Source of the DNA: Candidatus Jettenia sp. AMX2
Lineage (GTDB): Bacteria; Planctomycetota; Brocadiia; Brocadiales; Brocadiaceae
Length of the DNA stretch: 64,000 nt
Direction: 5' to 3'
Assembly (NCBI GenBank): GCA_030583665.1
Contig: CP129469.1
Span: forward strand, 992,001-1,056,000
Of this stretch, positions 29,085 through 61,211 are shown in pieces. Position numbers and translations under genes: made by a program. The notes under the pieces were generated by a model. It saw only the letters and a list, made by a program, of their open reading frames with translations. It searched no databases and was not told where the DNA came from. Position 1 is the first letter of the stretch. Every line of letters begins with the position of its first letter.

Positions 29085-29837
29085 ATGCAGACACTTTATG
29101 AAAAACCCAAAGCAATGTTCGACACGCCGACGCATTTTTGTCCGGGATGCGGTCATGGGATTGTTTTACGGTTAATTGCAGAGATTATTGATTCGTGGAA
29201 CATCAGGGGAAAAACTATCGGACTGGCTCCGGTGGGATGTTCCGTTCTGGCTTATAATTATCTTGATATTGATATGTGTGAGGCTGCTCATGGCCGTCCG
29301 CCTGCCGTTGCTACCGGTATTAAAAGGGTTCATCCGGACCATTTCGTGTTTGCATATCAGGGAGACGGTGATTTGGCGGCGATCGGGACGGCTGAAATTA
29401 TTCATGCTGCCAACAGAGGTGAAAATATAACATTTATCTTTGTTAATAATGCTATCTATGGAATGACAAATGGCCAGATGGCACCTACAACACTGCTGGG
29501 ACAGAAAACGGTCACAACACCTTCAGGGCGTGATGCGGTAAATTGCGGTTATCCGATACGTATCTGTGAACTGCTGGCCGTTCTCGATGGCAGCAGCTAT
29601 CTCGAAAGGGTAAGTATCTCCTCTCCGGAAAATATCCGAAGAACAAAAAAGGCAATTGAGAAAGGTTTTAAGACTCAAAAAGAAAAGAAGGGTTTTTCCC
29701 TTATAGAGATCCTTTCTCCTTGTCCTATCTACTGGAGAATGGATGCGAATGAATCAATGAAATATATTGATGAAGAGATGACTCGTACCTTTCCGCTCGG
29801 GGTAGTGAAAGATTGGGAGCAGAAGAAAAGTGGGTAG
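29085..29837 (+). CDS. korB: 2-oxoacid:ferredoxin oxidoreductase beta subunit (TPP-binding)
   Basis: This 250-residue subunit starts at ATG 29085, one base after the alpha stop. Motifs are THFCPGCGHGI (about 16-26), the TPP/Mg site GDGDLAAIGTAEIIHAANR near 102, and FVNNAIYGMTNGQMAPTT near 132. It binds the thiamine cofactor at the interface with the alpha subunit. A MITE follows 28 bp after the stop. Confidence 0.93.
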   Translation: MQTLYEKPKAMFDTPTHFCPGCGHGIVLRLIAEIIDSWNIRGKTIGLAPVGCSVLAYNYLDIDMCEAAHGRPPAVATGIKRVHPDHFVFAYQGDGDLAAIGTAEIIHAANRGENITFIFVNNAIYGMTNGQMAPTTLLGQKTVTTPSGRDAVNCGYPIRICELLAVLDGSSYLERVSISSPENIRRTKKAIEKGFKTQKEKKGFSLIEILSPCPIYWRMDANESMKYIDEEMTRTFPLGVVKDWEQKKSG

Positions 29838-29865
29838 TTAATAGGAGGTAGTTGGTAGATTAATA

Positions 29866-30056
29866 ACAGTACTTTGTTAAAAAATATGCCAAGTTTAATG
29901 TTAACTATAAAATAAGCAAAGACTTAAGCATGATTCAATTGGAAATTATAAGTCATCTAATCCATAGGAGATACAAAAATAATAATTTCAAAGCTTAACT
30001 ATCGGTAAATATGTAGCTTAAGTTCAAATTTATTGAAATTTTTAACAAAGTACTGT
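29866..30056. mobile_element. 191-bp MITE with 18-bp perfect terminal inverted repeats and AATA target duplication
   Basis: ACAGTACTTTGTTAAAAA at 29866-29883 is matched by its exact complement at 30039-30056. AATA flanks the element directly on both sides (29862-29865 and 30057-30060), as expected for a 4-bp target-site duplication. The AT-rich interior has no open frame of note, so it is non-autonomous. No other copy or parent transposase was seen in the window. Confidence 0.85.
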
Positions 30057-30168
30057 AATAACTCAACACCCAATATCTATATTTAATGTAAAGGAATTTC
30101 AAACCGTAAAATGGAAAAGTTGCTGCCAGAGGAAACCTATTTAACCTAAAAACCTTGCTGAGGGACGA

Positions 30169-30750
30169 TTGAAAAAAATGATACCCATAACGGAAAGGAT
30201 AATCCTTGCAGGTTTTGGCGGGCAGGGGATGATGCTGCTGGGAAAGTTGCTGGCACAGGCCGCAATGGCCGTCGGTAAATATGTGACTTTTTTCCCCTCC
30301 TATGGTACAGAAGTCAGGGGTGGAACAGCTGTGTATCATCTTATCATTTCAGACGAAGAAATCTTTTCCCCGCTCATTGAAGTTGCAGATACTTTGATAG
30401 TCATGAATCAGCCTTCCTATCAGAAATTTTATGGAATGTTAAAGCCTGATGGGCTGCTTATCCTGAATTCATCAATGATTACGGTACAAAACCATCCTGA
30501 AATGAAGGTGTATATGATTCCGGCTACTGAAATTGCCAGCAAACTGGGAAATGTCCTGGTTTCGAATATCGTTATACTCGGTGCATATCTGGCTATACGG
30601 AAATTGATTTCTGCTGACCAGATTTTGAAGCAACTGCGTGCAATATTAAAACAAAAAAAGGGTGAACTGTTTACCATTAATAAACAGGCGCTTGAGTACG
30701 GTATGAAAGTAATAACATCCCCGGTTTTGTCAAGTCATAACAAATCATAA
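30169..30750 (+). CDS. korC: 2-oxoacid:ferredoxin oxidoreductase gamma subunit
   Basis: This 193-residue subunit has the family motifs ILAGFGGQGMMLLGKLLAQAA (about 11-31, in two parts) and FFPSYGTEVRGGTA. The start is TTG 30169 (GAGGGA just upstream) or ATG 30178. It completes the enzyme but is separated from the beta subunit by 331 bp that hold the MITE, unlike the tight packing of the other subunits. Confidence 0.92.
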   Translation: MKKMIPITERIILAGFGGQGMMLLGKLLAQAAMAVGKYVTFFPSYGTEVRGGTAVYHLIISDEEIFSPLIEVADTLIVMNQPSYQKFYGMLKPDGLLILNSSMITVQNHPEMKVYMIPATEIASKLGNVLVSNIVILGAYLAIRKLISADQILKQLRAILKQKKGELFTINKQALEYGMKVITSPVLSSHNKS

Positions 30751-30772: not shown

Positions 30773-32167
30773 GTGAGCAAACTAAAAAAACAAATGTTCA
30801 CCAACAAAAGAATAACCGTAATGGGACTAGGTTGTTTTGGAGGAGGCATCGGAGTTAGCCGGTTTCTCGTAAATCAGGGTGCATTTGTCACGGTTACCGA
30901 CCTGAGAAATGAAGGAGAACTTTCCTCCTCATTGAAACAGCTTGAGGGGCTTCCCATTGTTTACAGACTCGGGGGGCACCATGACGAAGATTTTATACAT
31001 GCCGACATGGTTATTGTTAATCCGGCAGTGCCGGAGAACTCAAGGTTTCTGCAAATAGCACTGAATAACCGTGTTTCCGTTGAAACAGAGATAAATATTT
31101 TTTTTGCCTTGTGCCCTGCCCCGATTATCGGTGTTACCGGAAGTAACGGGAAGTCGACCACAACAGGACTGATTGGCACCATGCTCGGGCAAACCTCACG
31201 CAGGGTATGGATAGGAGGAAATATTGGAAAGTCTCTCCTGACAGGATTGGAAGAGATAAAGCCACAGGATATTGTAGTGCTGGAACTCTCAAGTTTTCAG
31301 CTCAAAAGACTATCCTCCATACAAAGAAGTCCGCATGTGAGCGCCATAACAAACCTGTCTCCGAACCATCTTGACAGACATTCCGGTATGGATGACTATA
31401 TTCAATCAAAAAAGAATATCATCCTGTATCAGCATGAGAATGACTATGCTGTCATCAATTATGATGACCCTGAATTGAGGAAATGGGAGGACGAATGCAG
31501 GGGGCGTATTCTATGGTACAGTACAAAAGAAAAGGTAAGAAACGGTGTTTTTGTTGAAAATGATGATGTTGTTGTATCGCTTGACCATCAGATGAAAAAG
31601 ATAGCATGTCTGTCAGCGGTTAAGATGCCGGGTATACATAATATTCAGAATATTCTGGCTGCTTCCGGTGCTGCTTATCTTGCGGGTGCAGAAGAATCAC
31701 ATATCGGGGGAGGTATAGCGGCATTTACAGGATTGGAACATCGTCTGGAATTTGTATCTGTAGTACATGGCATTCAGTATTTCAATGATTCGAAGGCAAC
31801 TACGCCAGAATCGGCAATTGCTGCCATCAGGGCTTTTCGGGAACCGGTAATTCTCATTGCGGGTGGTGGTGATAAAGGGAGTGATTTTGATGAGTTTGCC
31901 AGCGTCTGCGTGAAATGTACAAAGGCGATTATTCTCATGGGGACAACAGCAAAAAAGATATACGGCCTTATTCAACGGAAAATGCCGGAGGCAGGAAGAC
32001 CTTTATTGTTTATGGCAAATACACTTAATGAGGCCTTTCATCGGGCAACTACTGTTGCAAAAACGGGAGATGTTATATTACTTTCACCTGCATGTGCGAG
32101 TTACGATATGTTCCAGAATTATGAAGAACGGGGAAGACAATTTAAGCAACTGGTGCAGGCATTGTAG
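30773..32167 (+). CDS. murD: UDP-N-acetylmuramoylalanine-D-glutamate ligase
   Basis: This 464-residue peptidoglycan precursor enzyme has the Mur ligase ATP site GVTGSNGKSTTTGLIG (about 119-134), SSFQLKRL near 175, the middle-domain SPNHLDRH and C-terminal FNDSKATTPESAIAAI. It starts at GTG 30773 or ATG 30794. Other mur genes are not adjacent. Its presence supports peptidoglycan synthesis in this planctomycete-like genome. Confidence 0.95.
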   Translation: MSKLKKQMFTNKRITVMGLGCFGGGIGVSRFLVNQGAFVTVTDLRNEGELSSSLKQLEGLPIVYRLGGHHDEDFIHADMVIVNPAVPENSRFLQIALNNRVSVETEINIFFALCPAPIIGVTGSNGKSTTTGLIGTMLGQTSRRVWIGGNIGKSLLTGLEEIKPQDIVVLELSSFQLKRLSSIQRSPHVSAITNLSPNHLDRHSGMDDYIQSKKNIILYQHENDYAVINYDDPELRKWEDECRGRILWYSTKEKVRNGVFVENDDVVVSLDHQMKKIACLSAVKMPGIHNIQNILAASGAAYLAGAEESHIGGGIAAFTGLEHRLEFVSVVHGIQYFNDSKATTPESAIAAIRAFREPVILIAGGGDKGSDFDEFASVCVKCTKAIILMGTTAKKIYGLIQRKMPEAGRPLLFMANTLNEAFHRATTVAKTGDVILLSPACASYDMFQNYEERGRQFKQLVQAL

Positions 32168-60750: not shown

Positions 60751-61211
60751 CTAATTTAATGTATAGGAATTTCAAACTGTTAGTTCCTCCCCCCCTGTCT
60801 GCGTGCGGTGACCTGCCTGCCGCGCTGCGGCGCAGGCACGGCGCACAGGCAGGCTCGATGGGGGAGGTTAGGTGGGGGTAAAAGGAACAATCTGTGATCA
60901 CCCTCCCTTAATCCCTCCCGTCAAGGGAGGGAAAATGTTTTTTAGTCGCCGAAGGTCTAATTGATGGGTAAATATTGGGTAAATATGAGGTAACCCCGAA
61001 GGGGTGAGATGATTATAGCCAATACATAACCATAGATTAACAACCCCGAAGGGGTGGCATAAAACAACGATAATTCCGAAGGGATAGTATGAAGAATCTG
61101 TATTCTCTGTCACCCCTTCGGGGTTTAACCTATGTTTTGTATCTTTTACTATAATCATAACATCCCTTTGGGATTAAAAAAGTGGCAACTTATCAAATCC
61201 CACCCTAACTT
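60751..61211. repeat. 460-bp composite direct repeat, copy 1
   Basis: Runs from CTAATTTAATGTATAGGAATT to CCCACCCTAACTT. It contains a GC-rich palindromic stretch with CTGCGGCGCAGGCACGG, a CCCTCCCGTCAAGGGAGGG hairpin and two ACCCCGAAGGGGTG hairpins with TATAATCAT words. Nearly identical to 61401-61860. The first 210 bp recur inverted at 35366-35584. Confidence 0.9.

What the first reader, a model, noticed from the sequence alone, without database searches (positions are those of the whole stretch)
29862..30060. MITE inside the 2-oxoacid:ferredoxin oxidoreductase operon
A 191-bp element with perfect 18-bp terminal repeats and a clean AATA duplication separates the beta and gamma subunit genes, which elsewhere in this operon are packed tightly. 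The clean ends suggest recent insertion. It may reduce or uncouple gamma expression, or supply a promoter.
Basis: seen in the sequence. Interest (0 to 1): 0.6.

Follow-up and report, generated by a model that had tools for sequence, protein, structure and literature searches.

The report
IS701-type MITE in anammox operon
A short, gene-less piece of jumping DNA, which borrows its ends from a common family of bacterial jumping genes, sits between two enzyme-subunit genes of an anammox bacterium; it is an ordinary kind of insertion at a spot where relatives carry other small repeats.

Summary
Window 29866-30056 is a 191-bp element with perfect 18-bp terminal inverted repeats (TIRs) and an AATA duplication, between korB and korC of a Brocadiaceae genome whose nearest named relative is Ca. 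Loosdrechtia aerotolerans. It is a MITE of the IS701 family. Relatives carry the same ends on ~1.47-kb elements that encode an IS701 transposase and have 4-5-bp duplications. Related ~130-193-bp MITEs lie in three other genera. A similar 173-bp MITE in relative G010 interrupts an IS701 copy, and uninterrupted copies give the exact empty site.

Two corrections. The gap is 340 bp, so about 145 bp is not MITE; part of that is the end of a ~40-copy dispersed repeat. The junction was probably loose before the MITE arrived. The gap is at least 79 bp in 16 of 30 family loci, filled by different repeats, and at most 11 bp in 14, including the same-genus relative. The genome holds only fragments of a matching transposase. 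Effects on gamma expression are untested; promoter and terminator scans found nothing above chance.

The parts
29862..29865 (.). left copy of the target-site duplication, AATA
29866..29883 (+). left terminal inverted repeat, 18 bp
   Evidence: same ends on IS701 elements of relatives
29866..30056 (.). 191-bp IS701-type MITE, no coding capacity of its own, one copy in the genome
   Evidence: internal similarity to elements in G006 and G003, 0 of 500 shuffles as good
30039..30056 (-). right terminal inverted repeat, 18 bp, identical to the left
30057..30060 (.). right copy of the target-site duplication, AATA
30082..30107 (+). 26-bp end fragment of a different dispersed repeat (about 40 places in the genome), part of the older filling of the junction
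29085..29837 (+). korB, 2-oxoacid:ferredoxin oxidoreductase beta subunit, upstream neighbour
30169..30750 (+). korC, gamma subunit, downstream neighbour; GAGGG 5' of the TTG start lies outside the MITE

Best explanation
A type II MITE (kinship confined to the ends) of the IS701 family was inserted into the korB-korC junction of a Loosdrechtia-like anammox bacterium by an IS701 transposase acting in trans, making a 4-bp AATA duplication. The transposase source is now gone or decayed in this genome, so the copy is probably stranded. It landed in a junction that tolerates insertions and had probably already been widened by other repeat DNA. korC is most likely translated from its own ribosome-binding site, and the element is probably close to neutral. 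Shown: anatomy, matching IS701 elements, homologous MITEs, absence at this site in relatives, and an exact empty site for a same-ended MITE in G010. Inferred: trans-mobilisation of this copy, order of events, and neutrality.
For: Perfect TIRs and duplication. TIR with at most 1 mismatch found in 27 of 33 family genomes, against a single match of the reversed control pattern in the listed counts. 12 TIR pairs of 1,448-1,649 bp, of which 10 have exact 4-5-bp duplications (shorter, overlapping or inner pairs of the same loci not counted); the two long ORFs tested score 177.7 and 190.3 bits with IS701 model NF033540, cut-off 150. A published Thermus table lists IS701 at 1400-1550 bp with 4-bp duplications and one ORF (passage of PMC6352166); PMC8024623 says other IS701 members are known for 4 or 5 bp (passage). 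Internal homology to G006 and G003 elements, 0 of 500 shuffles; a profile search also finds a 130-bp relative in G018, flanked by TTAT copies. In G010 a 173-bp MITE plus 5 bp, removed, leaves 1,471 bp, 1,459-1,462 of them identical to three uninterrupted IS copies. Element absent from 44 of 44 relatives' junctions at 3 or fewer mismatches in the TIR.
Against: Single copy in its own genome, whereas MITEs are usually multicopy. No intact partner transposase there. No exact empty site for this copy. The G006 relative has no exact duplication. Internal sequence does not resemble the IS701 elements beyond the ends and their immediate neighbourhood in the BLAST, so descent from one of them is not shown. 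Internal similarity to the G010 173-177-bp MITEs is not above shuffles. The insides of only three elements made the profile, so the family is thinly sampled.
Confidence: 0.92

Rival explanations
1. The element is a regulatory insertion: it supplies a promoter for, or lowers, korC expression, and has been kept for that reason.
For: It lies directly upstream of korC. Prokaryotic MITEs with sigma-70-like promoters that act on neighbours are on record (passages of PMC10969869).
Against: One promoter-like site against 1.9 expected and no terminator-like site. The same junction is expanded in relatives by unrelated repeats, so no particular sequence is kept there.
Confidence: 0.08
2. The element is a structured RNA or REP-like hairpin of the operon, not a transposon product.
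For: As RNA the stretch folds better than 200 of 200 shuffles, z -5.05.
Against: The predicted outer stem is the two TIRs; no Rfam family matches it; the same TIRs bound IS701 elements with duplications; no relative has it at this operon.
Confidence: 0.03

Closest known systems
IS701 family insertion sequences
   Same: Ends of the relatives' full-length elements, transposase family, length and 4-5-bp duplications
   Different: No transposase gene; 191 bp instead of about 1.47 kb
Type II prokaryotic MITEs (likeness to an IS confined to the ends; passages of the review PMC10969869)
   Same: Size within 50-500 bp, TIRs, duplication, likeness to the IS only at the ends
   Different: One copy in its genome instead of many
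173-177-bp IS701-ended MITEs of relative G010
   Same: Same ends (up to 2 mismatches), 4-5-bp duplications in 3 of the 4 copies whose flanks were read, exact empty site for one
   Different: Multicopy; internal sequence not detectably related

Membership tests
MITE | short, no coding capacity, terminal inverted repeats | tested here: met
   191 bp, 18-bp perfect TIRs; the only ORF of 60 aa or more touching it is a minus-strand ORF, 29995-30339, that overlaps korC and looks like chance
MITE | target-site duplication | tested here: met
   AATA on both sides
MITE | other copies with matching ends | tested here: met
   homologous elements in G006 and G003; one copy only in the own genome
MITE | empty site in a related strain | tested here: inconclusive
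   absent from all relatives' junctions, but no relative shows the window's other 145 bp without the element; exact empty site shown only for the G010 173-bp element
IS701 family (as source of the ends) | full-length element with the same TIRs and an IS701 transposase | tested here: met
   L052 and L070/L223
IS701 family (as source of the ends) | 4-5-bp duplications | tested here: met
   10 of 12 long TIR pairs; 7 with 4 bp, 3 with 5 bp
IS701 family (as source of the ends) | mobilisation by the transposase in trans | not testable with these tools
   needs a transposition assay
IS701 element proper | encodes a transposase | tested here: not met
   no transposase-like coding sequence in the 191 bp

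The most novel reading that the evidence does not exclude
The korB-korC junction of Brocadiaceae is a recurrent landing slot: unrelated small repeats (IS701 MITE, two or more palindromic repeat families, C-rich repeats) have repeatedly loosened the gamma subunit gene from korB while korA-korB stayed 1-14 bp apart, possibly because gamma supply is regulated or tolerates uncoupling.
Probability: 0.3. Interest if true: 0.4.

Novelty: new member of a known kind. Interest (0 to 1): 0.2.

Why it matters
It adds an IS701-linked MITE family, spread over several genera, to the little-described mobile DNA of anammox bacteria. The search for 'IS701' with 'MITE' gave 4 papers; of these I saw passages of PMC6352166 and PMC9208149 and only the listing for PMC11578231 and PMC10586675. 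'anammox' with 'IS701' gave none, and 'anammox' with 'miniature inverted-repeat transposable' gave 2 papers that by title concern other organisms (listing only). The junction comparison shows how an operon boundary can be filled by unrelated repeats in different species.

Tried and rejected
Other copies in the own genome: none over the whole length. TIR matches with 2-3 mismatches were not above the reversed control (10+10 against 10+14), so only those with 0-1 mismatch were used in argument. An intact partner transposase in the own genome: only fragments at 922013-922387 and 426152-426375. A structured RNA: rejected. A strongly palindromic interior: self-complementarity of the inside without TIRs was reached by 5 of 500 shuffles, so only marginal. 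The first junction script mis-set stops and strands and was replaced. L153's korA-korB gap of 290 bp matches korA coding sequence of other loci, so it was treated as an interrupted korA, not an insertion. L137's junction has a TIR-like match with 4 mismatches, not assessed further. Junction loci not examined: one search covered 30 of the 32 genomes with a korC match; one more family genome had no match.

Full report
What is there. The window is bases 992001-1056000 of a one-contig, 3,460,033-base genome. The closest named record with a related KorB is Ca. Loosdrechtia aerotolerans YC1 (91%), followed by other Brocadiaceae. A 200-base stretch at the junction of the same-genus genome G001 is found unchanged in this record. 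The window therefore comes from an anammox bacterium; its own name was not given. Between korB and korC lies a 191-bp element, 29866-30056, with 18-bp perfect TIRs and AATA on both sides. The TIR has no third match in the window at 3 mismatches.

What it is. As a whole the element occurs once in its genome. Its ends are common in the family: with at most one mismatch to ACATTACTTTGTTAAAAA they occur in 27 of 33 genomes, while the reversed control pattern gave one match in the counts listed. Where two ends face each other about 1.47 kb apart, they enclose a transposase. Two long ORFs (L052, L070) pass the IS701 cut-off of NF033540 and match Pfam DDE_5. Of 12 such long pairs, 10 have exact duplications, 7 of 4 bp and 3 of 5 bp. 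This fits values in print for IS701: 1400-1550 bp, 4 bp and one ORF in a table of PMC6352166 (passage), and 4 or 5 bp as stated in PMC8024623 (passage; the same paper found 4-9 bp for its own elements).

Relatives of the MITE. Two short elements of 192 and 193 bp in G006 and G003 (other genera) resemble the inside of the window's element with the TIRs cut off, reached by 0 of 500 shuffles each in one orientation; G003's is flanked by CATA copies, and G006's has no exact duplication. A sequence-only profile of the three found matches in 13 of 62 genomes of the order at E <= 0.01. Only the three sources and G018 were strong (G018, E 6.5e-12, a 130-bp element between TTAT copies); the rest were E 6e-6 or weaker. 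G010 carries 173-177-bp elements with the same kind of ends whose inside is not detectably related to the window's. One of these lies inside a 1,649-bp IS701 copy. Taking it out with one 5-bp copy leaves 1,471 bp, identical at 1,459-1,462 positions to three uninterrupted copies. Short elements with these ends therefore do transpose.

The site. The gap is 340 bp. Without the MITE and one AATA, 145 bp remain; 30082-30107 of this is the end of a repeat with about 40 further places in the genome (41 further matches at E <= 10), most of the 29 others shown running on into a C-rich stretch. In 30 family loci read (of 32 genomes with a korC match) the gap is at least 79 bp in 16 (79-645) and at most 11 bp in 14. 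The same-genus relative is tight. In the named set, taking L135-L156, L173 and the window as close relatives (24, my grouping by KorB identity), korB-korC is 40 bp or more in 12 of 24. korA-korB is 1-14 bp in 23 of 24, the exception being an interrupted korA. The long gaps fall into several unrelated sequence groups, some shared between species at the same junction. Shared ones may be inherited, so these are not independent counts. korD-korA varies too (13-203 bp in those 24), so korB-korC is not the only loose junction. No relative has the MITE at this junction: 44 tested, none with a TIR at 3 or fewer mismatches.

How it works. Most likely an IS701 transposase acted in trans and put the element into an already loosened junction (inference). 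In this genome only transposase fragments like the query remain. An IS701 model search gave two weak matches, neither over the cut-off. The copy is therefore probably immobile now. korC has a GAGGG four bases before its TTG start, outside the MITE. The ATG that most relatives use corresponds to ATA at 30187, so the start has moved upstream. Promoter-like and terminator-like sites are not above chance, though those scans assume sigma-70 patterns. Effects on expression remain untested.

Verdict. 'Recent' and 'affects gamma' are unproven, and the claim that tight packing was broken by this element needs correcting. It is a new member of a known kind, of modest interest.

Noticed in passing
window 30082-30107 (also near 60754 and 61404): A 26-bp sequence beginning TTTAATGTATAGGAATTTCAAAC recurs about 40 times in the genome, mostly as the left end of a C-rich repeat; some copies are followed by other sequences, so the end may be shared by several repeat kinds.
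   Followed up: partly
window 30773-32167: murD directly follows korC in the window; no same-strand murD match was found in the 44 relatives' stretches, and in Ca. Jettenia ecosi (L136) a murD homologue lies about 1.3 kb downstream of korC on the opposite strand, so the segment may have been inverted.
   Followed up: partly
window 30178-30189: The ATG used by most relatives' korC reads ATA (30187) in the window and in L090 and L093, so the gene must start further upstream.
   Followed up: partly
L136, L141, L144, L149, L138 and L137, L147, L140 korB-korC gaps: Repeats of two sequence groups (CACGAAT-rich and CACAGAG/CGCAAAG-rich), palindromic in look, fill the same junction in other Brocadiaceae.
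   Followed up: partly
L228 (G010:C1:1281100-1282950): A 173-bp MITE sits inside a full-length IS701-family copy that has the same kind of ends, with an exact empty site in three other copies.
   Followed up: yes
G000:C1:1563530-1563555: Two TIR-like ends overlap head to head in about 26 bp, perhaps the remnant of an almost wholly deleted element.
   Followed up: no
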